DNA of 64,000 bases, taken from NCBI RefSeq assembly GCF_017968885.1, contig NZ_CP072913.1, positions 2,092,001-2,156,000 of the forward strand, written 5' to 3'. Shown piece by piece: positions 1,186-46,149 of the stretch; within the stretch, counting starts at the first letter, position 1; each line of letters starts with the position of its first letter. A program made the translations under genes and the position numbers. The notes below the pieces were generated by a model. It saw only the letters and a list, made by a program, of their open reading frames with translations, did no database searches and had not been told where the DNA came from. Source of the DNA: Pseudomonas sp. Tri1 (GTDB taxonomy: Bacteria; Pseudomonadota; Gammaproteobacteria; Pseudomonadales; Pseudomonadaceae).

Positions 1186-2652
1186 TTAGAGCACCGAAGC
1201 CGTCTGCGGCAGTTTTGGCTGGCGGTACAAGTCCAGCAGCACCTGGTCCAGCACCGATGACGCACCCCATGGTTTTGGATCATTGAGGATCGCCACCACC
1301 GCCCAGGTGTTGCCATTGATGTCACGGCTGAAGCCGGCGATGGCGCGGACGGTATTCAGGGTGCCGGTCTTGATGTGGGCTTCACCGGCCATGGCGGTGG
1401 TCTTGAGGCGTTTGCGCATGGTGCCGTCGGTGCCGGCGATTGGCATCGAGCTGATGTACTCCGCCGCATACGGGCTGTTCCAGGCGGCTTGCAGCATCGC
1501 CGCCATTTCCCGGGCGCTGACTCGCTCGGCGCGGGACAGGCCGGAGCCGTTCTCCATCACCAGGTGCGGCGCAGTGATGCCTTTCTTGGCCAGCCACTGG
1601 CGCACCACCCGCTGCGCCGCCTTGGCGTCATCACCGTCGGCTTCGTTACGGAACTGCGCGCCAAGGCTCAGGAACAGTTGCTGGGCCATGGTGTTGTTAC
1701 TGTATTTGTTGATGTCGCGGATGATCTCCGCCAGGTCTGGCGAAAACGCCCGGGCCAATACCTTGGCGCTGCTCGGGGTCGGGGCCAGGCGGTCCTTGCC
1801 CTGGATGCTGCCACCGAGCTCTTTCCAGATTGCCCGCACGGCTCCGGCGGTGTAGGTAGCGTGATCGAGCAGCGACAGGTAGGTCTGGGAACTGCAACCG
1901 TCACCGAGCTGACCGCCCACGGTCACCGTCACGCTGCCGTCTGCCTGGGTCACCGGGTTGTAGCGCACGCCGCCGGCGCATTGCTTGGAGTTGACCGCCT
2001 TGACCTGGTTCTCGATACGAATGCTGGCGATCGGCGGCTCCACCGACACCAGGACCCGACCGCCGTCATTGCGGGCGACGAAGCGCAGGGCCTTGAGGTT
2101 GACCAGCAGCGAGTCGGGCTTGACCAGGAACGGTTTGTTTTCGTCGTTGCCGTCGTCGTTGAACTCAGGCAGTTGTGGCTGGATGAAGAAACTGCGGTCC
2201 AGCACCAGGTCGCCGGTGACTTGTTGCACGCCGTTGGCCCGCAGGTCACGCATCAGCAGCCAGAGTTTTTCCATGTTCAACTTGGGATCGCCGCCGCCCT
2301 TGAGGTACAGGTTGCCGTTGAGGATCCCGCCGCTGAGGGTACCGTCGGTGTAGAACTCGGTTTTCCACTGGTGATTGGGGCCGAGCATCTCCAGGGCCGC
2401 ATAGGTGGTCACCAGTTTCATGGTGGAGGCCGGGTTCACCGAGACGTCGGCGTTGTGCAGGGTCGGGGTGCCGGGGCCGTTGAGCGGGACCATCACCAGG
2501 GACAGGGCATCGTCTTGCAGCTTGCTGGCCTTGAGGGCCTTTTGCACGTTGGGCGACAGGGCGGTGTTGATGGTGGCGGCGCTGGTGGTGACAGGCAGCG
2601 CCAAAGGAAGAAGAAGGCTGGCCAGAAGCAGTGGACGCAAAGATTTGATCAT
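1186..2652 (-). CDS. dacB: D-alanyl-D-alanine carboxypeptidase/endopeptidase (PBP4)
   Basis: 488 residues. A signal peptide (about residues 1-25, ending ...VTTSA) directs it to the periplasm. The penicillin-binding motifs are all present: SxxK as S76-T-M-K79, an SxN motif in KYSNNTMAQQ near residue 317, and KTG at K428. The large insert between SxxK and SxN is typical of the class C / PBP4 family. It should trim the terminal D-Ala and hydrolyse D-Ala-mDAP cross-links during peptidoglycan remodelling. In Pseudomonas, loss of PBP4 is linked to AmpC beta-lactamase induction (established for P. aeruginosa). It is a single-gene unit read towards the GGDEF gene. The start was chosen because it gives the signal peptide. 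Confidence 0.95.
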   Translation of the reverse strand: MIKSLRPLLLASLLLPLALPVTTSAATINTALSPNVQKALKASKLQDDALSLVMVPLNGPGTPTLHNADVSVNPASTMKLVTTYAALEMLGPNHQWKTEFYTDGTLSGGILNGNLYLKGGGDPKLNMEKLWLLMRDLRANGVQQVTGDLVLDRSFFIQPQLPEFNDDGNDENKPFLVKPDSLLVNLKALRFVARNDGGRVLVSVEPPIASIRIENQVKAVNSKQCAGGVRYNPVTQADGSVTVTVGGQLGDGCSSQTYLSLLDHATYTAGAVRAIWKELGGSIQGKDRLAPTPSSAKVLARAFSPDLAEIIRDINKYSNNTMAQQLFLSLGAQFRNEADGDDAKAAQRVVRQWLAKKGITAPHLVMENGSGLSRAERVSAREMAAMLQAAWNSPYAAEYISSMPIAGTDGTMRKRLKTTAMAGEAHIKTGTLNTVRAIAGFSRDINGNTWAVVAILNDPKPWGASSVLDQVLLDLYRQPKLPQTASVL

Positions 2653-2884
2653 GTGAAATAAAACCCTACGGGCGAGGGGGAAAAGACGAGGACATGGAAA
2701 TGAACGTCCTCAACGGTCATGAAAGTGTCGGCATTATGCCCCAAGGTACAACGGCTTGTGCCGTGCTTGAGCCCTTCGGGGTGGTATTTTTTTACCGACG
2801 GTAGGTCGACTCACCGATCAGTCGGGCAATCGATGCACCAAACTGGTAAAGTGCCGGCCGTTATTACTTATGAGGATTGTTCCA

Positions 2885-3229
2885 ATGGCGACTAACCGTT
2901 CCCAGCGTCTGCGCAAAAAACTGTGCGTGGATGAATTTCAAGAGCTGGGTTTCGAACTGAACCTGGATTTCAAAGAAGATCTGGCTGATGAGGCTATTGA
3001 CGCTTTCCTCGACGCTTTCCTCAAAGAAGCCATGGAAGCCAACGGCCTGGGCTATGTAGGCGGCGACGACTATGGTCTGGTTTGCCTGCAGAAGCGTGGC
3101 TCGGTCACCCAAGAGCAGCGTGCAGCCGTTGAAGCCTGGCTCAAGGCGCGTCCTGAGCTGACCAGCGTGGAAGTCAGCCCGCTGATGGACGTCTGGTACC
3201 CGGAAAAGCCGATCAATCCGGTCGCTTGA
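2885..3229 (+). CDS. yggL: YggL family ribosome-associated protein (DUF469)
   Basis: 114 residues starting MATNRSQRLRKKLCVDEF. An ATG 15 bases upstream is in frame but lacks the family-like N terminus, so the second ATG was taken. The sequence has the DUF469 pattern: basic N terminus, then ELGFELNLDF and the acidic EDLADEAIDAFLDAF helix. YggL of E. coli associates with the 50S subunit; that role is transferred from the family, not seen in the sequence. A strong terminator follows six bases after the stop, so it is the last gene of its transcript. Confidence 0.9.
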   Translation: MATNRSQRLRKKLCVDEFQELGFELNLDFKEDLADEAIDAFLDAFLKEAMEANGLGYVGGDDYGLVCLQKRGSVTQEQRAAVEAWLKARPELTSVEVSPLMDVWYPEKPINPVA

Positions 3230-3234
3230 TGTTC

Positions 3235-3269
3235 AAAAACCGGCAGCCCGTTTGGGTGCCGGTTTTTTT
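3235..3269 (+). terminator. Rho-independent terminator of yggL
   Basis: AACCGGCA and TGCCGGTT form the stem, with an inner CCC/GGG pairing, followed by a run of seven T. It starts six bases after the yggL stop. Confidence 0.9.
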
Positions 3270-3308
3270 GTGCCTGTCTGTTGGGTATGTGTTGTCCTTC
3301 AGGCCGCT

Positions 3309-3383
3309 ATCGCGAGCAAGCTCGCTCCCACAATGGTGATGTGAACGACACAAATCCCCTGTGGGAGCGAGCTTGCTCGCGAT
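3309..3383. repeat. REPIN (inverted REP doublet)
   Basis: ATCGCGAGCAAGCTCGCTCCCACA and its reverse complement flank a 30-base centre containing TGTGAACGACACAAATCC. The element at 5621-5695 has almost the same centre. Confidence 0.85.
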
Positions 3384-3397
3384 GCTCTTGAAGGCTG

Positions 3398-4588
3398 TCA
3401 GGCGCTACGCCAGTTCAGGATCAGCAAGGTCAACACTCCCGCCACAATCCCCCAGAACGCCGAACCGATGGAAAACAGCGTCAGCCCCGATGCCGTGACC
3501 ATGAAGGTGACCAGCGCCGCCTCCCGTTCCCGGGCTTCGCTCATGGCGATGCTCAAGCCATTGATGATCGAGCCGAACAGTGCCAGCGCCGCGATGGACA
3601 GCACCAGTTCCTTGGGCAGCGCGGCGAATAACGCCGCCAGTGTCGCGCCGAACACCCCGGCGACCCCGTAGAAAATCCCGCACCAGACCGCCGCCGTATA
3701 GCGCTTGCTGCGATCTTCGTGGGCATGCGGCCCGGTGCAGATGGCGGCGCTGATGGCCGCCAGGTTGATGCCATGGGAACCGAAAGGCGCCAGCAGCAAC
3801 GAAGCGATGCCGGTGCTGGTGATCAACGGCGAGGCTGGCACGGTGTAACCGTCGGCCCGCAGCACGGCGATGCCGGGCATGTTCTGTGAGGTCATTGCCA
3901 CCACGAACAGAGGGATGCCGATGCTGATAGTGGCCGCCAGGGAAAAGTGCGGCGTGGTCCAGACCGGTGTCGCGACTTCCAGGGCAAAACTGCTGAAATC
4001 CAACAGCCCCAGCAGGCCGGACAGCGCGGTGCCCATCAACAGTGCCGCCAGTACCGCGTAGCGGGGCGACAGGCGCTTGACGATCAGGTAGGTGAAAAAC
4101 ATCCCCAGCACCAGGCCGGTACGATGTTGGGCGGCGATGAAGATCTCACTGCCGATCTTGAACAGGATGCCCGCCAGCAGCGCTGCCGCCAGCGAGGCGG
4201 GAATGCGCTTGACCAGGCGCTCGAAGCTGCCGGTCAGGCCGCAGATCGTCACCAGCAGCGCACAGGTGATGTAGGCGCCGATGGCCTCGCCATAACTCAC
4301 ACCGCCCAGGCTGGTGATCAGCAACGCCGCCCCGGGTGTCGACCAGGCGATGGTGATCGGCGTGCGATAACGCAATGACAGGCCGATGGAACACACCGCC
4401 ATGCCTATGGAAATCGCCCAGATCCACGAGGAAATCTGGCCACTGGTCAGCCCCGCTGCCTGTCCGGCCTGGAACATCAGCACCAGGGAACTGGTGTAGC
4501 CGGTCATCATCGCGATGAACCCGGCGACGATGGCCGAGGGAGAAGTGTCAGCCAGTGGGCGAAGTGGCGTGGTCGTGACTTCGGTCAT
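3398..4588 (-). CDS. BenE family benzoate/H+ symporter-type permease
   Basis: 396 residues, starting MTEVTTTPLRPLADTSPSAI. A longer open frame exists upstream, but this ATG removes a low-complexity leader and matches where hydrophobic segments begin. About 11-12 membrane segments span the protein, with BenE-like stretches GFIAMMTGYTSSLVLMFQA and TPGAALL. The family imports benzoate by proton symport and is related to nucleobase permeases. It stands divergent from a GntR regulator and next to guaD/xdh genes, so an aromatic or purine-like substrate is possible. The substrate is inference; no benzoate catabolism genes are in the window. Confidence 0.85.
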   Translation of the reverse strand: MTEVTTTPLRPLADTSPSAIVAGFIAMMTGYTSSLVLMFQAGQAAGLTSGQISSWIWAISIGMAVCSIGLSLRYRTPITIAWSTPGAALLITSLGGVSYGEAIGAYITCALLVTICGLTGSFERLVKRIPASLAAALLAGILFKIGSEIFIAAQHRTGLVLGMFFTYLIVKRLSPRYAVLAALLMGTALSGLLGLLDFSSFALEVATPVWTTPHFSLAATISIGIPLFVVAMTSQNMPGIAVLRADGYTVPASPLITSTGIASLLLAPFGSHGINLAAISAAICTGPHAHEDRSKRYTAAVWCGIFYGVAGVFGATLAALFAALPKELVLSIAALALFGSIINGLSIAMSEAREREAALVTFMVTASGLTLFSIGSAFWGIVAGVLTLLILNWRSA

Positions 4589-7043: not shown

Positions 7044-7886
7044 TCAACGGTTCGCCTGGCTGCGGCGCGAGGCTGGCAGCAGCTTGGCAATCGGTTCGGT
7101 GCGGGCGGTGTGCTGGCCGAAATCAGCGTTATAGGTGGCGATGATTTCGCCGGCGATGGAGATGGCGATTTCCACCGGCAACTTGCCTTTGACTTCGCCG
7201 ATACCCATGGGGCAACGCATGCGTTGCAATGTGCTGCTGTCGAAGCCGCGGTCGCGCAGGCGATGTTCGAACTTGACCCGTTTGGTCTTCGAGCCGATCA
7301 GGCCGAAGTAAGCGAAGTCGTTGCGCTTGAGGATCGCGGCGCTCAGTTCCAGATCGAGCTGGTGGTTGTGGGTCATGACAATGCAGTAGCTGCCGGCGGG
7401 CAATTCGTCGACCTCATCCAGCGGGTCTTCGCTGACGATCTTGCGCACACCGTGGGGCAGTTGTTCGGGAAACTCGGCTTCCCGCGCGTCGATCCAGCGC
7501 ACCTTGCAGGGCAGGCTCGCCAGCAGCGGCACCAAGGCGCGACCGACATGGCCGGCGCCGAACACGGCGATCTGCGCCTGGACCTGGCCCATGGGTTCGA
7601 ACAGCAAGACGGTCACGCCGCCGCAGCACTGGCCCAGGCTGGCGCCGAGGCTGAAGCGCTCCAGATGCGTGCTTTGCTGGCCGCTGGCGAGCATTTGCCG
7701 GGCGAGCTCCATGGCCTTGTATTCCAGGTGCCCGCCACCAATGGTGTCGAATGTCTGGCTGGCGCTGATGACCATCTTCGAACCGGCGTTGCGCGGTGTG
7801 GAGCCAAGCTCTTCGATGATCGTCACCAGCACGCAGGGTTCACCGCGATCTTGCAGGTCGGCGAGGGCGCTGATCCAGTTGTACAT
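7044..7886 (-). CDS. xdhC: Xanthine dehydrogenase accessory protein XdhC
   Basis: 280 residues from the ATG in MYNWISALADL. A GTG two codons earlier also fits, but GAGGTG just before this ATG looks like its ribosome binding site. An N-terminal XdhC/CoxI domain (ALADLQDRGEPCVLVTIIEE) and a C-terminal Rossmann-like part (VFGAGHVGRALVPLLASL) are visible. XdhC binds the molybdenum cofactor, promotes its sulfuration and inserts it into XdhB (known from Rhodobacter). It lies between guaD and xdhB; a REPIN separates it from xdhB, which may stabilise or separate the messages. Confidence 0.95.
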   Translation of the reverse strand: MYNWISALADLQDRGEPCVLVTIIEELGSTPRNAGSKMVISASQTFDTIGGGHLEYKAMELARQMLASGQQSTHLERFSLGASLGQCCGGVTVLLFEPMGQVQAQIAVFGAGHVGRALVPLLASLPCKVRWIDAREAEFPEQLPHGVRKIVSEDPLDEVDELPAGSYCIVMTHNHQLDLELSAAILKRNDFAYFGLIGSKTKRVKFEHRLRDRGFDSSTLQRMRCPMGIGEVKGKLPVEIAISIAGEIIATYNADFGQHTARTEPIAKLLPASRRSQANR

Positions 7887-7922
7887 ATTCACCTCGACAT
7901 CTCTGTTGTCTGTTCCGGCCTC

Positions 7923-7994
7923 ATCGCGAGCAAGCTCGCTCCCACATTGGGTCGGTGTTCACAAATCCCCTGTGGGAGCGAGCTTGCTCGCGAT
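7923..7994. repeat. REPIN between xdhC and xdhB
   Basis: Inverted arms ATCGCGAGCAAGCTCGCTCC and GGAGCGAGCTTGCTCGCGAT enclose TGGGTCGGTGTTCACAAATCC. It fills most of the 123-base gap in an otherwise tight gene run. Confidence 0.85.
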
Positions 7995-8009
7995 TGGCCG
8001 CGCCGCGGT

Positions 8010-10409
8010 CTAAAGTGGAGCCAACTCGGCCTCGGCTTGCGCAGGCGTCACAGTCTTCAACTGCCGCATCTGCTCACACCCCCACAACACCCTCTCCGGT
8101 GTCGCCGGCGCATCGATTTTCGGCTGGTGCTGGTAATCCCCCAGGCTCGCCACGGCGTCCTTGATGGCGCACCACGCAGCGATGCCGAGCATGAACGGCG
8201 GCTCGCCCACGGCCTTGGAATGGAACACCGTGTCTTCGGGGTTCTTGCGGTTTTCCACCAGTTTGACCCGCAGGTCCAGCGGCATGTCGGCCACGGCGGG
8301 GATCTTGTAGCTGGCCGGGCCGCTGGTCATCAGCTTGCCCTTGTCATTCCACACCAGCTCTTCCATGGTCAGCCAACCCATGCCCTGGATGAAGCCACCC
8401 TCGACCTGTCCGATGTCGATGGCCGGGTTCAACGAGGCGCCGACATCGTGAAGGATGTCGGTGCGCAGCATCTTGTATTCACCGGTGAGGGTGTCGACGA
8501 TCACCTCGGCACACGCCGCGCCGAAGGCGTAGTAGTAGAACGGCCGGCCCCGGGCCTGGCTGCGGTCGTAGTAGATTTTCGGAGTCTTGTAGAAACCGGT
8601 GCTCGACAACGAAACCTGGGCGAAATACGCCTGCTGGACCAGCGCCTCGAACGTCAAGATGTGATCGCGCACCCGCACATGGCCGTTGTGAAACTCCACG
8701 TCTTCTTCGCTGACCTTGTAGTGCCGCGCGGCGAATTCCACCAGACGCTGCTTGATGGTTTGCGCGGCATTCTGCGCGGCCTTGCCGTTCAGGTCGGCGC
8801 CACTTGAGGCTGCAGTGGGCGAGGTGTTCGGCACCTTGTCGGTGTTGGTCGCGGTGATCTGCACCCGGTCCATTTCGACCTGGAACACCTCGGCCACCAC
8901 TTGCGCGACCTTGGTGTTCAAGCCCTGGCCCATTTCGGTGCCGCCATGGTTCAGGTGGATGCTGCCGTCGGTGTAGATGTGGATCAAGGCACCTGCCTGG
9001 TTGAGGAAACTGGCAGTGAATGAAATACCGAACTTCACCGGGGTCAGCGCCAGGCCTTTTTTCAGGATCGGGCTGTTGGCGTTGTAGCGGCGGATAGCCT
9101 CGCGACGCTCGGCGTACTGGCTGCTTTGCTCAAGTTCGGCGGTCATTTCCTCGAGCATGTTGTGCTCGACGGTCTGGTAGTAGTGGGTGACGTTGCGCTC
9201 GGTCTTGCCGTAGTAGTTTGCCTTGCGCACCGCCAGCGGATCGAGCCCCAGGTGCCGGGCGATGGCGTCCATCACCTCTTCGATGGCGACCATGCCTTGC
9301 GGCCCGCCGAAACCCCGGTAGGCGGTGTTCGAGGCGGTGTTGGTCTTGCAGCGATGGCCGTTGATGGTCGCATCGCCCAGGTAATAGGCGTTGTCGGCAT
9401 GGAACATGGCCCGGTCGACAATCGAGGCCGAGAGGTCCGGCGAGCAACCGCAGTTGCCAGCCAGTTCCAGGGCGATGCCATGCAGGCGCCCGGTGCTGTC
9501 GAAGCCGACGTCGTATTCGATGTAGAACGGGTGGCGCTTACCGGTCATCAGCATGTCTTCGACGCGGGGCAGGCGCATCTTGGTCGGCTGGCCGGTGAGG
9601 TGGGCGATGACTGCGCACAGGCACGCCGGGCTGGCGGCTTGGGTTTCCTTGCCGCCGAAGCCGCCGCCCATGCGGCGCATATCCACCACGACCTTGTTCA
9701 TCGACACGCCCAGCACTTCGGCCACCAGTTTCTGCACTTCGGTGGGGTTCTGGGTCGAGCAGTAGACGAGCATGCCGCCGTCTTCGGTGGGCATCACTGA
9801 GGATATCTGGGTTTCCAGGTAAAAATGTTCCTGGCCGCCGATGTGCAACGAGCCTTGGATACGGTGCTCGGCACTGGCCAGGGCCGTGGCCGAATCACCC
9901 CGTTGGTGGGTGTGGCTGTCGAGCACGAAATGCCGCTTGCGCAAGGCTTCGACCACGTCGAGCACCGGTTCCAGGTCTTCATATTCGACAATCGCCGCCA
10001 TCGCGGCCTTGCGCGCGGTTTCCAGGTCCTTGGCGGCGACGGCCAGCACCGGTTGGCCGACGAACTGCACGTCATCGATGGCCAGCAGCGGGTCGCCGGG
10101 AAGCAGCGGGCCGATGTCCTTGAGCCCCGGCACGTCCTCATGGGTGATGACGATGCGCACACCTTCGAAGGCGTAGCAGGGCGCGGTGTCGATGCGCAGG
10201 ATCCGGGCGTGGGCGCGGTCCGACAGCCGGGCGTAAACGTGCAGTTGGTTAGGGAATTCCAGGCGATCATCAATGTACTGGGCTTCACCGGACACATGCT
10301 TGGCGGCGCTGTCATGCTTGACGCTGCGGCCCACGCCAGTGGTCAGGTCGCGGGCGAACAGCTCGGCCAGTTCGGCTTGAGTCTTCTCTACGGCGTGATG
10401 GTTAGACAT
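8010..10409 (-). CDS. xdhB: Xanthine dehydrogenase, molybdopterin-binding large subunit
   Basis: 799 residues, the usual size for the bacterial large subunit. The a/b hammerhead domain is at the N terminus (VKHDSAAKHVSGEAQYIDD). Molybdenum-site sequence follows: GGGFGGKETQ, the AYRGFGGPQG region, GTEMGQGLNTK and the C-terminal VGEPPFMLG, whose Glu is the catalytic base. It oxidises hypoxanthine and xanthine to urate, with electrons passing to the small subunit. Its start overlaps the xdhA stop by eight bases, so translation is probably coupled. Confidence 0.97.
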   Translation of the reverse strand: MSNHHAVEKTQAELAELFARDLTTGVGRSVKHDSAAKHVSGEAQYIDDRLEFPNQLHVYARLSDRAHARILRIDTAPCYAFEGVRIVITHEDVPGLKDIGPLLPGDPLLAIDDVQFVGQPVLAVAAKDLETARKAAMAAIVEYEDLEPVLDVVEALRKRHFVLDSHTHQRGDSATALASAEHRIQGSLHIGGQEHFYLETQISSVMPTEDGGMLVYCSTQNPTEVQKLVAEVLGVSMNKVVVDMRRMGGGFGGKETQAASPACLCAVIAHLTGQPTKMRLPRVEDMLMTGKRHPFYIEYDVGFDSTGRLHGIALELAGNCGCSPDLSASIVDRAMFHADNAYYLGDATINGHRCKTNTASNTAYRGFGGPQGMVAIEEVMDAIARHLGLDPLAVRKANYYGKTERNVTHYYQTVEHNMLEEMTAELEQSSQYAERREAIRRYNANSPILKKGLALTPVKFGISFTASFLNQAGALIHIYTDGSIHLNHGGTEMGQGLNTKVAQVVAEVFQVEMDRVQITATNTDKVPNTSPTAASSGADLNGKAAQNAAQTIKQRLVEFAARHYKVSEEDVEFHNGHVRVRDHILTFEALVQQAYFAQVSLSSTGFYKTPKIYYDRSQARGRPFYYYAFGAACAEVIVDTLTGEYKMLRTDILHDVGASLNPAIDIGQVEGGFIQGMGWLTMEELVWNDKGKLMTSGPASYKIPAVADMPLDLRVKLVENRKNPEDTVFHSKAVGEPPFMLGIAAWCAIKDAVASLGDYQHQPKIDAPATPERVLWGCEQMRQLKTVTPAQAEAELAPL

Positions 10410-39499: not shown

Positions 39500-39875
39500 C
39501 AAATGCATCCCACGGCAGTGGAAAAGTGCCGGGGCCAGTACGTGCCGACCACGGTCAGAAAGGGTGTTGCGGTGGCGCAATGATACGCCTGTCGCTCTAG
39601 CCCAAGGGTGCGACCTTTGGTCGCGTTGGGGGTCTGCATAGAATGGTGTAGTGGATGTAACAAGTCATGACCCAGATCAATTGACTATAGACATTCCATG
39701 GCGTTGGCGAAAATCGAAGGGTGGTAACGGTGCGCAAGTCAGTAGACCGGCAAACCCAACGAAAATCCGGGGTGTGCTCGAAGGTGCCATGTGCACAGCC
39801 ACCGCCAAGGGCAGGCAAATGCCTGGATGAGATTCATGCGGCCTCCTGTCGGCTAGCGCTATCGAATTGTGGCTG
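39500..39875. other. Regulatory region upstream of ccoG
   Basis: 376 bases with no supported gene. It holds the Anr box (39667-39680) and a hairpin at 39610-39624 (GCGACC-TTT-GGTCGC), which may be a 5' leader structure. The far side ends at the stop of the Rhs-linked candidate immunity gene. Confidence 0.6.
39667..39680 (-). promoter_or_regulatory. Anr box upstream of ccoG
   Basis: On the minus strand this reads TTGATCTGGGTCAT; the left half-site is perfect and the right has two mismatches to ATCAA. It is placed to drive the ccoGHI-ccoS genes. Confidence 0.6.
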
Positions 39876-40886
39876 CTACTGGCTATACAAAATGTTGTAG
39901 AACGAGGTTGGATCGTCCCGGATCAAGGACAGATCGTGTCCCGTGGGGATTTTGTCGAACAGCGCCTTATTGACTGCCATTCGGCGCCTGATTATTGCCT
40001 CCAGCAGTTTGCCGAACAAGGCGTCATCATTGACGTACTTTTTCAACTTTAGAATTTCGCGAGGCTTGTTCTTCAGGATATGGAAGGAATAGTTCATCAA
40101 GATAATATTGGAGACAAACAGGTTATCCGTTGACTGGCGCGGGTTGGTCGTGTCGGCCAATGCCCCGAGTACCTGCTTTTCGTCGTGCTCATAGGCGTGC
40201 AGAAATACATCGGGGTACATGAGTTCGCTGAACCGATCATTGAGCCTGAAACGGTAACTTGTGTTGTCGGGTTCCACCAGTAACTTGACGATGCCGGCTT
40301 GATAGCTTTTCAGCGTCCTGAACAACGCATGTTCTTTTCTACTGGCGAACTTGATCACGTCATAAGCCAAGTCGATCGCATCCAGAAAACTCACAGGTCC
40401 CAACGCGTCGGTCGCCATCATCAGCTGATGATCTTCAATGCTGAACCGACGATACGCCTCGTCATCGATGCTCAATTCGAAGAGCAGGAACCTGAGCATG
40501 TGGTTCCTGAGCTGTGCATCCGCATCGAGAGGGCTGTTCTTCAAGCTGATCAACTGAATCAGATAGAAAAAAATAAAATAGTCTTTGTTGGTGCGTTGAC
40601 GGTTGTCGATTTCAAGCAAATAGCCAAAACGCGACAGGACCAGGACAAGGGCATAGCAGTCCGCTTCCGTGAAGCCGTTTTTCGACATGGATTTTTCGAA
40701 AGTACGCATGGAAAACAAATCCTGCCAGCGACTCACGCTGAAGGCTGAGCCGTTGTGTTTTCTGGCAACAACACGGAGCAGTGACGGCTCATCCTCTTTG
40801 TAAAAAACAACGTCCAGCTCCTTTGGATACGGCCGGGCATTCAGGAAATGTTCAAGCTTGTATGAAAGGAGATTGAATATGTCCAT
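39876..40886 (-). CDS. Unrecognised protein; candidate immunity protein for the Rhs toxin
   Basis: 336 residues from MDIFNLLSYKLEHFLNARPY. The longer open frame upstream overlaps the Rhs end and is not chosen. It starts four bases after the Rhs stop, the typical place of an immunity gene. No signal peptide or clear membrane segment is seen; the sequence looks mainly helical (FTEADCYALVLVLSRFGYLL, DYFIFFYLIQLIS), with many charged residues. GC is clearly lower than in the flanking cco genes, as in the Rhs toxin tip. At 336 residues it is large for an immunity protein. No family recognised; the immunity role is inferred from position. Confidence 0.7.
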   Translation of the reverse strand: MDIFNLLSYKLEHFLNARPYPKELDVVFYKEDEPSLLRVVARKHNGSAFSVSRWQDLFSMRTFEKSMSKNGFTEADCYALVLVLSRFGYLLEIDNRQRTNKDYFIFFYLIQLISLKNSPLDADAQLRNHMLRFLLFELSIDDEAYRRFSIEDHQLMMATDALGPVSFLDAIDLAYDVIKFASRKEHALFRTLKSYQAGIVKLLVEPDNTSYRFRLNDRFSELMYPDVFLHAYEHDEKQVLGALADTTNPRQSTDNLFVSNIILMNYSFHILKNKPREILKLKKYVNDDALFGKLLEAIIRRRMAVNKALFDKIPTGHDLSLIRDDPTSFYNILYSQ

Positions 40887-40890
40887 ACCG

Positions 40891-43800
40891 TTATCCGCAC
40901 GTTTTCCATTTGCCGTTCGGGCCTTTTTTCTCGACACGGAACGATGTGATGGTTTTATTGAATTTATCCAGTAACCGGAAACCGATACCTCTGGCCTTGG
41001 GTTCATTCGTTTTGGACAGCACGCCATCCTTAAGGCCCGTCTCCTTATAGTCAACGGTAGAAATATCCTTGTGACTGTTGAGCATGCTGACCCCTTCATT
41101 ATTGACGGTGGCTACTACTCGATACTTCTCGTTGCCCGGATTGAAGCCGGGGTTGCTGTCCTGATTCACCCAGACGGCTTTCTCACCTCTGATATTAGGA
41201 ACCAACCCCCCTTTGCCGCCGTTGGCTGCCTTGGATGAGACCGTTTCGCTTTCGCCCATGTAACGAATAATCTCATTCTCTTTCAATCCCAGCGGATCGA
41301 TCCAGGTGAATGGATTTGGTGAGTAGCGGTAGAGGTTCAGGCTACCGGTCAGGCCCAGTGGGTCGGGGGTGGTAAAGCGTCCAACATCGGGATCATAAAA
41401 ACGGAAGGTGTTGTAGTGCAGACCCGTTTCCCGGTCCAGGTACTGTCCCTGAAACCTCAGGTTCTGTTCTTCGATGTAGTACGGCTCACGTACCTCATCA
41501 ATGGTGTTGCCCCACACCTGATAATGGGCGTGCCATAGCGGGTGGCCGTCACTTTCCGTCAAGACTTGTGGAAGTCCGTTGAGGTCGTTGTGGTAATAGC
41601 GCACGCGTTGATTTTCATCGAGGCCATCGACTCTGGCCAAGGGCGCGTGATCGTTACCGATGTAGAGGTACAGACTGGTCAGACTGTTTTTATGCTCCTT
41701 GAGTAGTTGCAGGCCATCCCAGTCGAAGCGTGTACAGGCAATCAGCTGCCCATTGTGGTTATGTTCGGTTTTCTCAATCCTTCGGCCCAAGGGGTCATAG
41801 CGCATTCTGACTACGCTTTCACCCTCGGTTTTTTGTGTTCTAACTTCAATCAAGCGATGGTCCGAGTCGTAACTGAAACGCTGCAAGCCATGCCGCCTGC
41901 TGCGTTTTTCAATCATTCGTCCAAATCCGTCGTAGCGATAACGTTTGTCTTGATAGGTCAGCACTTGGTTATGCACAACCCGTCCAATTGCGCTGCAGGG
42001 ACCGTCGAGCAGATTAGCTGCCGCGTCGAAGGAAAAGGTTTCATTCTGACCTTGGCGACTTCCCTGGCTTGCCAGGATCCGACCTGTCACGTCGTAGTGC
42101 AGCAGTTGGCGTTGTTGACTTTGTGGTAGTCGTTCGAGACGTCCTACAAGGTGATCGCCGGGATCGAATTCAAAATGGATTTGTTCGGCAGCCGCCATTA
42201 ACGAAGGGTGGCTGATATGCCGACGCTGGCGGCTACGTAAGCGTCCGCTACGGTCGTATTCGCTGCGGGTACTGATCTGCCCTTGGGTGCGCAGCACTTC
42301 CCGGTGCAGCCGATCGCGTTCGAAGTCGCTGATGACTTGGCCATCAAGGTTGATTTGATGCAGGTGACCACTGCCGTAGTAGAGGCGGTTGATCCAGCGT
42401 CCGTCAGGTAGTTGGGTCTGGATCAGGTTACCGAGTTCGTCGTAATGATGCTTCAGATGGCCCGTCGAACTTTGCTCTTCAATCAGATAGCCCAGAGCGT
42501 CATAGGCGAAGCCAAGTCTCTGCTCGTTGCCTTCGTTATCGATAACGATGGCTTCGATCAACTGGTTCAATGGGCTATAGCTGTACAGGGATCGTCCGTC
42601 AGGTGTGATTCGGGTGGTCAGCCGACCAATCGCATCGCGCTCCAGATGCTGGACGATAGTTTTTTCGTTGGGCTGGTGATCATTTCGCGGCGCTGCGAGG
42701 GTCTCGACTTGTCTTACGTTATCGAGGGCGTCATAGGTATAACGTCTGGCGCTGCCATTGAGGTCCTGTTGTTCCGCCAGCCGATCCCCAGCATCCCAGG
42801 CAAACCGATAACTCTCGCCATTCTCGTTGGTCAGCGCTTGCAGTCGGCCGAAGCTGTCGTATGCAAATTGCACTTGGCGACCCTGGGCGTCGGTGCGTTG
42901 GCGGACCTGGCCGCGGCGGTTGTGTTGGTAGCGCGTGGTGTGTCCGGCGGGGTCGGTGTAGCCGGTCAACTGGCCGGCGATGTCGCGCTGGTAGTGCTCG
43001 GTGCGGCCGTCCGGCAGTTGGCTGCCGAGCAGGCGGCCTTGGGCGTCGTAGCTGAAGTGCGTGCGTTCGCCGAGGGCGTCGGTGATGGTTTGCAAGTAGC
43101 CGCGGTGATCGTAGCTGAAACGCGTCGGGTAACCCGAACAATCCACATGCTCGACCAATTGCCCAAACGGGTTCCAGCGCAGCTTTTTGCTCTTGCCGGT
43201 GGCGTCGATGATTTCCACCACCTGGCCGTGGGCGTCGTAGCGGTAGCGGGTGACGTGGCCCAGTGGGTCGGTTTCCGCGGTGCAGTTGCCGCGCTGATCG
43301 TAGCGGTATTGCCAACTGTTGCCGGCGGCGTCGGTGTCCACCAGCGGCAGGGCCCAGTGTTCGAGCCAGAGGGTGGATTCGCTGCGGCCCAGCGGATCGG
43401 TTTCGCTGAGCAGGTTGCCGGCTTCGTCGTAGCTGAATTGGTACTGGCCGCCTTGTGGATCGGTGGCGCTGAGCAACTGGCGCTCGTCGTTCCACTCGAA
43501 CAGCCAGGTCTGGCCGAGGTTGTCGGTGAACTGGGTGATCTGGTGTTGGTTGTTCCATTGCCGGGTGCTGACGCGTTGCAGGCTGTCGCTGATGCGGGTG
43601 ATGCCGGCCTTGAGGTCGTAGTCGAACTGATAGGCATCGCCCTCGTCGGTCCAGTGCCGGACCACGCGCCATTCCTGATCCTCGATCAAGGCCCATTCGT
43701 AGAAGCAGTGCAGCCCGGTGGGCAACTGGTGCTCGACCATCCGTTGCCCGGCGTCATAGCTGAAACGCCGTTGCACCTGGCCGCTGGCATCGCGTACTTC

Positions 43801-45288
43801 GGCCAGGTTGTCCGCCGCGTCGTAGGCATAGCTGACGAGCACTTCGCGCTGCTGGTCGGAGTAGAGGCGTTCTATCCGAGTGACGCGTTCGTCTTCGCGG
43901 ATCAGTTCGACCTGCACCAGATCGAAGGTGTCGCGTAGCCGCACTAACCGTCCGGCGTCGTCGTAGTCCAGGTAAATACGGTTGTTGTTGCGGTCGCCCA
44001 GTTGGTTCAGGCGCAGCAGCGATGCATTGGCTGGTGTGGGTTCGAACAAACGGTACAGGCCATCGTCACTTTCGATCAGCAACTGTCCATTGACGTGGCG
44101 GCGCACGGCCAGGCCTTCGCCGGCGCTGAACACCGCACCGTCCAACGGGATGGAACCCATGTCGATCGGGCGGCCCTGCTCGTCGGTGTAGACCAGGGTT
44201 TCGCCGCCGTCCGGGTGAGGGCGGATGTCGACCTGCACCTCGTAGGCCACGCTCCAGCCGGCGCCGAACAGGCTATCGCGGCGCTCATCGCGGCTGTTGT
44301 AGACGCGTTGCCAGCCGATGGGCAGCAGGCCGGGCAAGACGAAGTCCAGCTCTTCAGCACCGCCCAGCACCTTGGCCCCGGTGGCGGCATGCACCGGGTT
44401 CGACGAACCTAGGGCGGCGTTGGCCGCCGCGTTCGCTGCGCTGCTGGCGGCCATGGACACCGCGCCGCCTACCAGCATGCATGGCAGTTTGCTGAAGAAT
44501 TTGCCCTTGCCACCCTTGAGCATCAACAGCGCCGTGACCGCCAACCCTACGCCCGGGGTCTTGCCGCTGCGGATCTCGCGCACCACCACCGAACCGCCAC
44601 CGATGGTCACGTTGGACGAAATCAGCCCGGCCGACACCACCGTCGCGTCGCAGGTGCTGCGGTCGCCGCTGCGCACGGCGGGTTGGCCGTTGATGGTGAC
44701 CTTGTCCGAACCTTCGGCCATGAACTGCGGCGGCATGGGCGGGTGCTTGGTGCAGATGACCAGGTCTTCCGGCTTTGGCACCGCGCCGGGTGCGGGCATG
44801 GCAACGGTGGGCCGCCACATCTGCGAAAAGAAATTCCCGGCCATGTCCAGGTAGCTGGGTTCTTCTTCAGGCTCCGGGGCTTCAAGCTCGGTGCCGGCCG
44901 GGGCGACGTGGGATTCAATCGCCCCTGCGGCGCGGGCGGCAGGGATGTTGTTGGTGAGGGTGTTGGTGGAGCCGGTGAGAATGTTCGCCTGCACCGTGGG
45001 CGGAAAGAGGGCGTTGCCGATGCCCTCGCATATATTGCTCAACCCCTTGTCGGCCCCGGTCTTGCTCATGGCCAGGCCAACGACGGTGCCCACCACCAGG
45101 CCGAGGACGAAGCAGCCCAGGCCGCCGGTGGCGACGGTGATGCCAGTGGCCGCGACCACGGCGGCGGTCGCCAGGGCGGTGATCGCGATATTGGCCGCCA
45201 CCTCCAGCACGCCGCCGAGGATGTCGGCCATCATTGAAGTGTGGTTGAGTGCATCGCCCAGGCGGGCCGCCCAGAGCGCGTCAGACAT
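40891..45288 (-). CDS. prePAAR/PAAR Rhs type VI secretion effector with variable C-terminal toxin region
   Basis: 1465 residues. Residues 7-16 (AARLGDALNH) fit the prePAAR motif AARxxDxxxH. A membrane hairpin (about 27-75) and a split PAAR-like domain (about 83-240, VTINGQPAVRSGDRSTCDAT) follow, with a second hydrophobic region near 266-295. YD repeats span about 400-1230. The Rhs core ends with PFTWIDPLGL (P-x4-DPxGL), the self-cleavage motif. The last 130 residues (1336-1465) are the toxin region: RYMGESE, GLVPN and EKAVWVN give at most a weak hint of an ADP-ribosyltransferase-like fold. Such effectors are delivered by the T6SS through VgrG. No Eag chaperone, VgrG or T6SS core gene is in the window. 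Confidence 0.9.
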   Translation of the reverse strand: MSDALWAARLGDALNHTSMMADILGGVLEVAANIAITALATAAVVAATGITVATGGLGCFVLGLVVGTVVGLAMSKTGADKGLSNICEGIGNALFPPTVQANILTGSTNTLTNNIPAARAAGAIESHVAPAGTELEAPEPEEEPSYLDMAGNFFSQMWRPTVAMPAPGAVPKPEDLVICTKHPPMPPQFMAEGSDKVTINGQPAVRSGDRSTCDATVVSAGLISSNVTIGGGSVVVREIRSGKTPGVGLAVTALLMLKGGKGKFFSKLPCMLVGGAVSMAASSAANAAANAALGSSNPVHAATGAKVLGGAEELDFVLPGLLPIGWQRVYNSRDERRDSLFGAGWSVAYEVQVDIRPHPDGGETLVYTDEQGRPIDMGSIPLDGAVFSAGEGLAVRRHVNGQLLIESDDGLYRLFEPTPANASLLRLNQLGDRNNNRIYLDYDDAGRLVRLRDTFDLVQVELIREDERVTRIERLYSDQQREVLVSYAYDAADNLAEVRDASGQVQRRFSYDAGQRMVEHQLPTGLHCFYEWALIEDQEWRVVRHWTDEGDAYQFDYDLKAGITRISDSLQRVSTRQWNNQHQITQFTDNLGQTWLFEWNDERQLLSATDPQGGQYQFSYDEAGNLLSETDPLGRSESTLWLEHWALPLVDTDAAGNSWQYRYDQRGNCTAETDPLGHVTRYRYDAHGQVVEIIDATGKSKKLRWNPFGQLVEHVDCSGYPTRFSYDHRGYLQTITDALGERTHFSYDAQGRLLGSQLPDGRTEHYQRDIAGQLTGYTDPAGHTTRYQHNRRGQVRQRTDAQGRQVQFAYDSFGRLQALTNENGESYRFAWDAGDRLAEQQDLNGSARRYTYDALDNVRQVETLAAPRNDHQPNEKTIVQHLERDAIGRLTTRITPDGRSLYSYSPLNQLIEAIVIDNEGNEQRLGFAYDALGYLIEEQSSTGHLKHHYDELGNLIQTQLPDGRWINRLYYGSGHLHQINLDGQVISDFERDRLHREVLRTQGQISTRSEYDRSGRLRSRQRRHISHPSLMAAAEQIHFEFDPGDHLVGRLERLPQSQQRQLLHYDVTGRILASQGSRQGQNETFSFDAAANLLDGPCSAIGRVVHNQVLTYQDKRYRYDGFGRMIEKRSRRHGLQRFSYDSDHRLIEVRTQKTEGESVVRMRYDPLGRRIEKTEHNHNGQLIACTRFDWDGLQLLKEHKNSLTSLYLYIGNDHAPLARVDGLDENQRVRYYHNDLNGLPQVLTESDGHPLWHAHYQVWGNTIDEVREPYYIEEQNLRFQGQYLDRETGLHYNTFRFYDPDVGRFTTPDPLGLTGSLNLYRYSPNPFTWIDPLGLKENEIIRYMGESETVSSKAANGGKGGLVPNIRGEKAVWVNQDSNPGFNPGNEKYRVVATVNNEGVSMLNSHKDISTVDYKETGLKDGVLSKTNEPKARGIGFRLLDKFNKTITSFRVEKKGPNGKWKTCG

Positions 45289-45388
45289 GCCAAAGGCTCA
45301 TGCAAACGCCTGTGTGCTCAAGTGGTTTGATACTTTCCATTGCGCCTATCTCCTTGGCGGTGAGTTGAGGGGGCGTCGCGACGTTGTA

Positions 45389-45799
45389 TTAGTTTGACCA
45401 GGGATTGAACAGCGCCACGCCGCTGCCTTGGAAATCACTCACGTTGCGGGTCACCACGGTCAGGCCATGGACCAGCGCGGTAGCGGCAATCAGTGCGTCG
45501 CACTCATTGCTGCGGTCGGGTACATGCAGGCGCGCGCAACGCAGTGCGACGGCGCGGTCCACGGCCAGGATCCTGCCGGCAAAGGCGGGTATCACATGAT
45601 TATCCAGCCAGGCCCGCAGGCGACTGCCTTGCGTCGGGTCCTTGCGTTCGAAGCGCAATACGCCGGTTTCCAGTTCCAATACGGTAATCGCTGAGACATA
45701 CAGGCTGGGAGCGGGGACGCTGCGCGCCCAGGCTTGGACGTTTTTGTCTGCCTGGGGTTTACGCAGTTCCGAAATGACATTGGTATCGAGTAAAAACAT
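45389..45799 (-). CDS. PIN-domain toxin, VapC/FitB type
   Basis: 136 residues. The acidic PIN residues are present: D5 (LLDTN), E42/E44 (VLELETG), D101 (NECDALIAA) and D122 (TRNVSDF). The family acts as Mg-dependent endoribonuclease, often on tRNA or rRNA. Its ATG directly abuts the stop of the upstream antitoxin gene (TGA then ATG), the classic order antitoxin-toxin. It lies between the Rhs gene and the first cbb3 operon. The RNA target is unknown. Confidence 0.92.
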   Translation of the reverse strand: MFLLDTNVISELRKPQADKNVQAWARSVPAPSLYVSAITVLELETGVLRFERKDPTQGSRLRAWLDNHVIPAFAGRILAVDRAVALRCARLHVPDRSNECDALIAATALVHGLTVVTRNVSDFQGSGVALFNPWSN

Positions 45800-46054
45800 T
45801 CAGGACAGGTCCACCGAACGGGGAGTAATGACGGCACGCTCGGTATCGAAATCGATATCCGGCGCATCGGGCATGACCAGCAACTCGACAATACTGGGGC
45901 CAATGCCGGTCAGTTTCTGGTACTCCTCAATGCTTAGCAGCACATGGGCCGGCTTGCCACGGTCGGTGATGATAACCGGGCCTTCACGCGTAGCTTTTTT
46001 GGCACCACTTGTGTCGTGGTTGAATTCGCGGCTGGAGATGGTCGTGATGGACAT
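45800..46054 (-). CDS. Phd/YefM-type antitoxin
   Basis: 84 residues from MSITTISSREFNHDTSGAKK; a longer frame exists but lacks the family start. The N-terminal half has the Phd DNA-binding fold pattern (SSREFNHDTSGAKKATREGP, VIITDRGKPAHVLLS), and the acidic C terminus should wrap the toxin. It would neutralise the PIN toxin and repress its own promoter. The pairing of a Phd-type antitoxin with a FitB/VapC-type toxin is common in chromosomes. Confidence 0.9.
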   Translation of the reverse strand: MSITTISSREFNHDTSGAKKATREGPVIITDRGKPAHVLLSIEEYQKLTGIGPSIVELLVMPDAPDIDFDTERAVITPRSVDLS

Positions 46055-46149
46055 GGAAGTGCCCTCATTGAGCTCGAATGTAGGCACGTTACTACTGGAG
46101 TGAGTGGCCGGCAAGCGAAACAGATTTGCTCAGGTTTCGGACCGCTAAC

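What the first reader, a model, noticed from the sequence alone, without database searches (positions are those of the whole stretch)
39876..45288. Orphan prePAAR-Rhs type VI effector with an unassigned toxin tip and a large candidate immunity protein
The gene has a prePAAR motif (AARLGDALNH), membrane hairpin, PAAR, YD repeats and the P-x4-DPxGL cleavage site, followed by a 130-residue C-terminal region that I cannot place in a family. A 336-residue unknown protein starts four bases after its stop, where immunity genes sit. prePAAR effectors normally need an Eag (DUF1795) chaperone; none is encoded next to it, nor any VgrG. Toxin and immunity together could be a new pair.
Basis: partly seen in the sequence, partly recalled or inferred. 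Interest (0 to 1): 0.8.

Follow-up and report, generated by a model that had tools for sequence, protein, structure and literature searches.

The report
Relocated Rhs toxin with unassigned tip
A Pseudomonas carries a caged candidate antibacterial toxin and its likely antidote gene, both from families without a name, far from the secretion genes that should launch it, and the helper gene it seems to have left behind is still at the old site.

Summary
The window encodes a 1465-residue prePAAR-PAAR-Rhs protein with a 130-residue tip, followed four bases later by a 336-residue protein. Neither matches Pfam or NCBIfam above a cut-off. They behave as a toxin-immunity cassette: all 9 of 398 genus genomes with tip sequence also hold partner sequence, and one Phytobacter plasmid carries both (65% and 34% identity). 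Where a newer tip has arrived, the partner gene usually persists downstream. The missing chaperone is explained. An Eag gene stands at this genome's T6SS locus, followed by an Rhs leader scar and an orphan SUKH immunity gene; in 12 of 12 relatives with that Eag, an Rhs homologous to this one follows it. The window Rhs is best read as a relocated duplicate with its chaperone in trans. In three relatives with both copies, the N-terminal delivery module is 95-100% identical within a genome while cores differ, suggesting gene conversion. The tip is nearly frozen (dN 0.003-0.012 in 6 of 7 comparisons) while the partner drifts (dN 0.08-0.17). Tip chemistry is unresolved; an ADP-ribosyltransferase-like fold is a lead whose profile test failed.

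The parts
40891..45288 (-). prePAAR-TM-PAAR-Rhs-tip effector, 1465 aa
45241..45270 (-). prePAAR motif AARxxDxxxH (aa 7-16)
   Evidence: motif definition from PMC7773334 passages
45055..45222 (-). single hydrophobic (likely transmembrane) region, aa 23-78
   Evidence: Kyte-Doolittle windows
44632..44766 (-). PAAR domain, aa 175-219
   Evidence: Pfam PF05488 E 8.5e-12; same place
44377..44397 (-). N-terminal autocleavage-type motif PVHAATG, aa 298-304
   Evidence: compared with motifs quoted in PMC13285283 passages
41284..41364 (-). DPLGL-X17-DPLGL C-terminal autocleavage-type motif, aa 1309-1335
   Evidence: pattern quoted in PMC13285283 passages
40894..41283 (-). variable tip (candidate toxin), aa 1336-1465; GC 0.49 against 0.61 in the core
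   Evidence: no Pfam/NCBIfam/PADLOC match
39876..40886 (-). candidate immunity protein, 336 aa, GC 0.485, no strongly hydrophobic segment
   Evidence: co-occurrence
45312..45356 (-). leader stretch shared with the eag-rhs intergenic region of G125 (37 of 45 identical) and with the scar in this genome's T6SS locus (33 of 45)
   Evidence: above all 500 shuffles in both
39724..45394 (-). inserted segment relative to Rhs-free sites in G125 and G267 (approximate ends; the ccoG-side end is 39688 against G267)
45389..45799 (-). PIN-domain (VapC-like) gene bordering the insertion
   Evidence: Pfam PF01850 E 8.3e-15
45800..46114 (-). Phd/YefM-type antitoxin gene beside the PIN gene
   Evidence: Pfam PF02604 E 2e-10

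Best explanation
This is a class I prePAAR Rhs effector of the type VI secretion system with a toxin-immunity cassette from unassigned families. The gene is best read as a duplicate of the Rhs that follows vgrG-eag in the T6SS locus of relatives, now between a PIN/Phd module and an oxidase gene (ccoG, name recalled). In this genome the resident copy was lost, leaving a leader and an orphan SUKH immunity gene behind the eag. Inferred mechanism: the distant Eag binds the TM region in trans, prePAAR and PAAR cap VgrG, the Rhs shell encloses the tip, aspartate autocleavage at PVHAATG and DPLGL frees it, and the tip acts as an enzyme in the target cytosol, possibly NAD-consuming with an ART-like fold. 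The 336-aa cytosolic protein protects kin, most likely by binding the tip. Shown by sequence: anatomy, pairing, insertion, scar, displacement. Inferred: direction of the move, delivery, cleavage, toxicity, immunity. The ART/NAD chemistry alone is a lead, about 0.35 likely.
For: Domains and motifs. Pairing: partner in 14 of 398 and tip in 9 of 398 genus genomes, all 9 being among the 14; 1 plasmid record of 72,556 has both, tip 65% and partner 34%. Displacement: of 12 genomes with full-length partner, 6 have the whole tip beside it, 3 a remnant, 3 none detected near it, and in those last six an Rhs with another tip, or a piece of one, lies upstream. Chaperone: Eag at G000 6565811; its homologue in 12 of 13 relatives, followed by a homologous Rhs in 12 of 12, of which G035 is visible only for its first 100 aa. 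Scar and SUKH gene in G000. Second copy: T6SS-site Rhs also present in G290, G268, G173 and G035. N-terminal homogenisation in 3 of 3 genomes with two full copies at the two sites.
Against: No experiment shows toxicity, immunity or secretion. No sequence family or solved structure assigns the tip, and the AlphaFold models are poor (pLDDT 41.7 and 45.3). The ART lead failed its profile test (hhalign probability 2.8%). Use of the distant Eag is inferred from synteny and N-terminal identity. The leader match is found for the T6SS sites of G125 and G290 but not for those of G268, G173 and G267, and BLAST with the window leader found nothing significant in the own T6SS locus. Pfam prePAAR_I did not hit the Rhs.
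Confidence: 0.75

Rival explanations
1. The tip is a ribonuclease (BECR-type) or another nucleic-acid enzyme rather than an ART/NAD enzyme; everything else as in the best explanation.
For: The tip is basic (22 K+R against 15 D+E); nucleases are named among Rhs tip activities (PMC8636562 passages). An invariant His and several invariant Lys are present in alignment A1.
Against: No match to a nuclease family in Pfam or NCBIfam.
Confidence: 0.35
2. The cco-site Rhs is a relic that is no longer delivered, kept only for the immunity gene.
For: It is separated from eag and vgrG; displaced immunity genes in relatives stay intact after the toxin is lost; in Pseudomonas sp. Q11 (L046) the cco-site Rhs is internally deleted.
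Against: The window ORF is intact over 1465 codons; the tip is under strong purifying selection (dN 0.003-0.012 at dS 0.2-1.4 in 6 of 7 comparisons with the window copy); the N-terminal module is homogenised with the resident copy in 3 relatives.
Confidence: 0.12
3. The 336-aa protein is not the immunity protein but an unrelated neighbour.
For: It is large for an Rhs immunity protein (recalled); it occurs without the complete tip in 6 of the 12 genomes that hold it full-length.
Against: It follows each complete tip that I found (7 Pseudomonas loci apart from the window, and the Phytobacter plasmid, where no full Rhs carrier is annotated); in tip-less loci it sits where displaced immunity genes sit.
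Confidence: 0.07

Closest known systems
Class I prePAAR Rhs effectors (RhsA of P. protegens, Rhs1 of S. Typhimurium; Rhs1 of P. laumondii placed here by me)
   Same: prePAAR, one TM region, PAAR, YD shell, paired cleavage motifs, Eag and VgrG in the same genome
   Different: Gene lies megabases from this eag and vgrG; about 10% of prePAAR genes are isolated from an eag (PMC7773334 passages)
Rhs C-terminal displacement (Jackson et al. 2009, PMC2935791, passages)
   Same: Incoming tips displace older tips, which persist downstream
   Different: Here the displaced immunity genes are mostly intact, and a whole Rhs also sits at a second locus
TreTu-type and Tne5 ART-fold toxins
   Same: Short start pattern R-[YW]-M-[SG]; beta-rich layout in a low-confidence model
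   Different: No Pfam match; hhalign with TreTu_C gives probability 2.8%; Tne5 sequence not compared
Phytobacter diazotrophicus plasmid pTMTA97303 tip-immunity cassette
   Same: Homologous tip (65%) and partner (34%) in the same order
   Different: No full Rhs carrier annotated in the stretch shown; lies among other tip and immunity genes on a plasmid

Membership tests
Class I prePAAR Rhs T6SS effector | AARxxDxxxH motif in the first residues | tested here: met
   aa 7-16; but Pfam prePAAR_I not reported for it at E<=1
Class I prePAAR Rhs T6SS effector | one N-terminal TM region, PAAR domain, YD repeats | tested here: met
   (TM by hydropathy only)
Class I prePAAR Rhs T6SS effector | DPxGL-X17-DPxGL and N-terminal cleavage motif | tested here: met
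Class I prePAAR Rhs T6SS effector | Eag chaperone and T6SS in the genome | tested here: met
   2 Eag genes, 2 TssC genes, VgrG-type hits
Class I prePAAR Rhs T6SS effector | T6SS-dependent, Eag-dependent export | not testable with these tools
   needs secretion or competition assay
Polymorphic toxin-immunity pair | immunity gene directly downstream and co-inherited | tested here: met
Polymorphic toxin-immunity pair | toxicity of tip and specific neutralisation | not testable with these tools
   needs expression assay
TreTu / ART-fold toxins | significant profile similarity | tested here: not met
   no Pfam hit; hhalign with four TreTu_C sequences 2.8%; both alignments shallow
TreTu / ART-fold toxins | ART fold and NAD-binding cleft | tested here: inconclusive
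   AlphaFold pLDDT 41.7; fold search of the tip never accepted by the queue
DraG-type ADP-ribosylhydrolase immunity (Tri1-like, recalled) | ADP-ribosylglycohydrolase domain | tested here: not met
   not among the Pfam families reported for 13 homologues
Tne5 NAD(P) glycohydrolase | sequence and structural similarity to the P. gergoviae tip | not tested

The most novel reading that the evidence does not exclude
The tip founds a new toxin family and the 336-residue protein a new immunity family. The toxin is locked in sequence while its immunity protein drifts about twenty times faster at amino-acid level in five of seven comparisons, which would fit immunity through a few contacts, or through an enzymatic or target-protecting action, rather than a co-evolving interface. 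The delivery module of the distant Rhs copy is kept matched to the Eag/VgrG partner by gene conversion between separate sites of the chromosome.
Probability: 0.3. Interest if true: 0.6.

Novelty: new member of a known kind. Interest (0 to 1): 0.42.

Why it matters
It adds an unassigned candidate toxin-immunity pair, found in these searches only in Pseudomonas and one enterobacterial plasmid. It gives a readable case of how a prePAAR Rhs can become separated from its chaperone: a second copy at another site and later loss of the resident one, with a scar left behind. The nearly frozen tip beside a drifting immunity gene, and the within-genome homogenised N-terminal module, can be tested directly.

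Tried and rejected
Tip and partner against Pfam, NCBIfam and PADLOC: no family above cut-off. Weak hits were rejected: DUF1229, reported for 11 of 13 partner homologues at best E 0.008 and below its cut-off, covers about 40 residues in the window protein; PD-Lambda-5_A (E 0.003) covers 30. PDB sequence and profile searches: nothing convincing. Viral contigs, tip and partner: none. Phages: partner searched, none; the tip was not searched there. E. coli complete genomes with the Phytobacter pair DNA: 61 of 5426 match, no place covers 80%, and the 15 rows listed reach only the first 92 of 1501 bases, under Rhs genes. The profile hit in G336 (E 0.03) lies in what by eye is a TolC-like protein. Relation to TreTu_C: not supported. 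Foldseek on the partner's low-confidence model gave nothing (best E 0.79). An overlapping reading frame as reason for the frozen tip was rejected because synonymous divergence in the tip is as high as in the core. Asymmetry between tip and partner was checked on two other tips of the same Rhs platform: same direction, weaker, so it is partly general. One dS value could not be computed.
Full report
Observation. The minus-strand ORF 45288..40891 encodes 1465 residues with a prePAAR motif at aa 7-16, one hydrophobic region at aa 23-78, PVHAATG at aa 298-304 and DPLGL at aa 1309 and 1331. Pfam finds PAAR (aa 175-219), DUF6531 and RHS repeats, but not prePAAR_I at E<=1. The tip (aa 1336-1465) and the following 336-aa ORF (40886..39876, starting four bases after the stop) have GC 0.49 and 0.485 against 0.61 in the core, as expected for an exchangeable cassette. 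Neither has a Pfam or NCBIfam assignment over a cut-off, and PADLOC gave only one weak hit.

Pairing. Among 398 genomes of the genus, the partner gives a match in 14 and the tip in 9, and all 9 are among the 14. The partner is full-length in 12; G273 (contig end) and G233 hold fragments. Of the 12, 6 have the complete tip directly before it (G000, G035, G125, G290, G268, G307), 3 a tip remnant (G296, G354, G083), and 3 none detected nearby (G173, G183, G267). In the six without a complete tip, an Rhs gene with another tip, or a piece of one, lies upstream. This is the C-terminal displacement described for enterobacterial rhs (PMC2935791, passages). I checked 17 partner stretches, fragments and the duplicate locus L045 left out: none has an internal stop. 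In G267 the frame runs past the usual stop (one search gives 372 aa), and the Phytobacter stretch, cut by the alignment, begins inside the gene. A displaced pair (G173 against G267) differs by dN 0.147 at dS 1.03, like the paired ones. One scan of genome contigs with the tip gave 6 loci, all Pseudomonas, each with the partner in the same locus, 4.2 kb away in L048. L045 is identical to the G035 contig, so it is not independent, and since it is P. tehranensis and G035 is marked 'same genus', the window's genus is Pseudomonas. Of 72,556 plasmid records one holds both genes: Phytobacter diazotrophicus pTMTA97303, tip 65% and partner 34%, among other tip and immunity genes. In a class-wide sample only the own genome of 360 matched the partner profile. 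Viral contigs gave neither and phages no partner.

The missing chaperone. The genome has two Eag (PF08786) genes near 6.56 Mb, beside a VgrG and two short prePAAR-PAAR proteins, and two T6SS clusters judged by TssC. The second Eag (L061 12787-13221) has homologues in 12 of 13 relatives examined; the miss, G273, is a draft in about 1200 contigs. In these 12 it is followed by an Rhs homologous to this one, with this tip only in G125 and G307, and seen in G035 only for the first 100 aa before the contig ends. In the window's own genome, the stretch behind the Eag matches the G125 leader (88% over 111 bases, E 3e-32) and then runs into a SUKH (SMI1/KNR4) gene like ones found downstream of relatives' Rhs; no Rhs core is found in that 20 kb stretch. 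The window Rhs carries a related leader: positions -68 to -24 match G125 in 37 of 45 bases and the own scar in 33 of 45, above all 500 shuffles each; the T6SS site of G290 matches too, those of G268, G173 and G267 do not. BLAST at default scoring had missed the window-scar match.

Relocation. Around the window Rhs, homology to Rhs-free sites in G125 and G267 stops at about 45394 and resumes at 39723 (G125) or 39688 (G267). The Rhs-tip-partner segment thus sits as an insert of about 5.7 kb between the PIN gene and ccoG (names ccoG, ccoP recalled). An Rhs lies at this site in G173, G290, G268, L044 and L046, with flanks on both sides; in L043 between ccoP and ccoG without the PIN/Phd genes; in G035 only the ccoG side is on the contig, in G273 only the other. 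In G290, G268 and G173, and as far as the contig goes in G035, a T6SS-locus Rhs is present as well. So the cco-site gene looks like a second copy, and G000 has lost the resident one. The direction of copying is inferred. A study of prePAAR reports about 90% of prePAAR genes beside an eag and about 10% in isolation (PMC7773334, passages).

Concerted evolution of the delivery module. In the three genomes with both complete copies, three bins over the first 663 nt are 95.0-100% identical between the two sites within a genome, falling to 63.5-73.8% over nt 2101-4005. The cco-site copies of these genomes differ from each other more in the first 663 nt (84.7-90.6%), while G290 and G268 share cores (91.6-92.2% over nt 2101-4005). 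Gene conversion of the prePAAR-TM-PAAR part explains this best and suggests that the distant copy is used with the same Eag and VgrG. Against or limiting: n is three; the core end of the G173 cco copy is unlike the other two (66%); window and G290 or G125 copies reach 91-94% in parts of this region; and a tandem second copy in G267 shows no such effect (84.7-87.2%).

Frozen tip, drifting partner. Against the window copy, the tip differs by 1-2 of 131 residues in 6 of 7 comparisons, despite 18-56 nucleotide differences, while the partner differs by 57-87 of 336 (Fisher p 5e-4 to 2e-8). In five of those six, tip dN is 0.003-0.012 at dS 0.9-1.4 and partner dN 0.13-0.17 at dS 0.8-1.0; the nearest relative, G035, has tip dN 0.010 at dS 0.20 and partner dN 0.083 at dS 0.32. 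G307 is different: 19 tip changes against 102, p 0.13. Two control tips on the same platform lean the same way (RES tip dN 0.005-0.012 against 0.033-0.075; another 0.053 against 0.166). The asymmetry is partly general and strongest here. dS values near 1 are rough, and the comparisons share ancestry.

What the tip does. AlphaFold2 with the 6 permitted rows gave pLDDT 41.7 with a beta-rich layout, and the partner, with 7 rows, 45.3 and mostly helical. Neither is good enough to assign a fold; the Foldseek result for the partner is not meaningful (best E 0.79), and the tip search was never accepted. The tip's start (I-R-Y-M-[SG]-x-x-E) recalls TreTu-type ART toxins. Tested against four TreTu_C stretches from the genus, hhalign gave probability 2.8% over 17 columns. 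The ART reading is therefore a lead, not a result. Tne5, an ART-fold Rhs tip that degrades NAD (PMC13285283, abstract and passages), was not compared. The Serratia Rhs NADases (PMC10539506, passages) were not compared by sequence either.

Verdict. An intact T6SS-type Rhs effector with an unassigned candidate toxin-immunity pair: a new member of a known kind. The 'orphan without chaperone' part is explained by relocation, with the Eag probably acting in trans.

Noticed in passing
L061:13602-14087 (G000 T6SS locus): Orphan SUKH (SMI1/KNR4) gene directly behind the Rhs leader scar; its lost toxin is unknown.
   Followed up: partly
L046 (Pseudomonas sp. Q11) about 7232-8231: Internal deletion brings the PAAR region of the Rhs next to the second half of the tip, with the immunity gene intact.
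   Followed up: no
L116 (G000 1704810-1705100): A TreTu_C domain at the end of a very long open frame (4838 aa) elsewhere in the window's genome.
   Followed up: no
L101:6780-7220, L103:6953-7393, L110:4263-3823: RES-type tips on the T6SS-locus Rhs of relatives (Pfam run on the L101 one only), each followed by a 92-aa ORF.
   Followed up: partly
L032:8145-8540 and L036:9449-9051: Another Rhs tip of about 131 aa (the L032 one has no Pfam match) followed by a 156-aa ORF; possible further unassigned pair.
   Followed up: no
window 45389-46114: PIN/Phd toxin-antitoxin module beside the Rhs insertion, also present at the Rhs-free sites of G125, G267 and G296 but not found at those of G183, G354 and G307.
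   Followed up: partly
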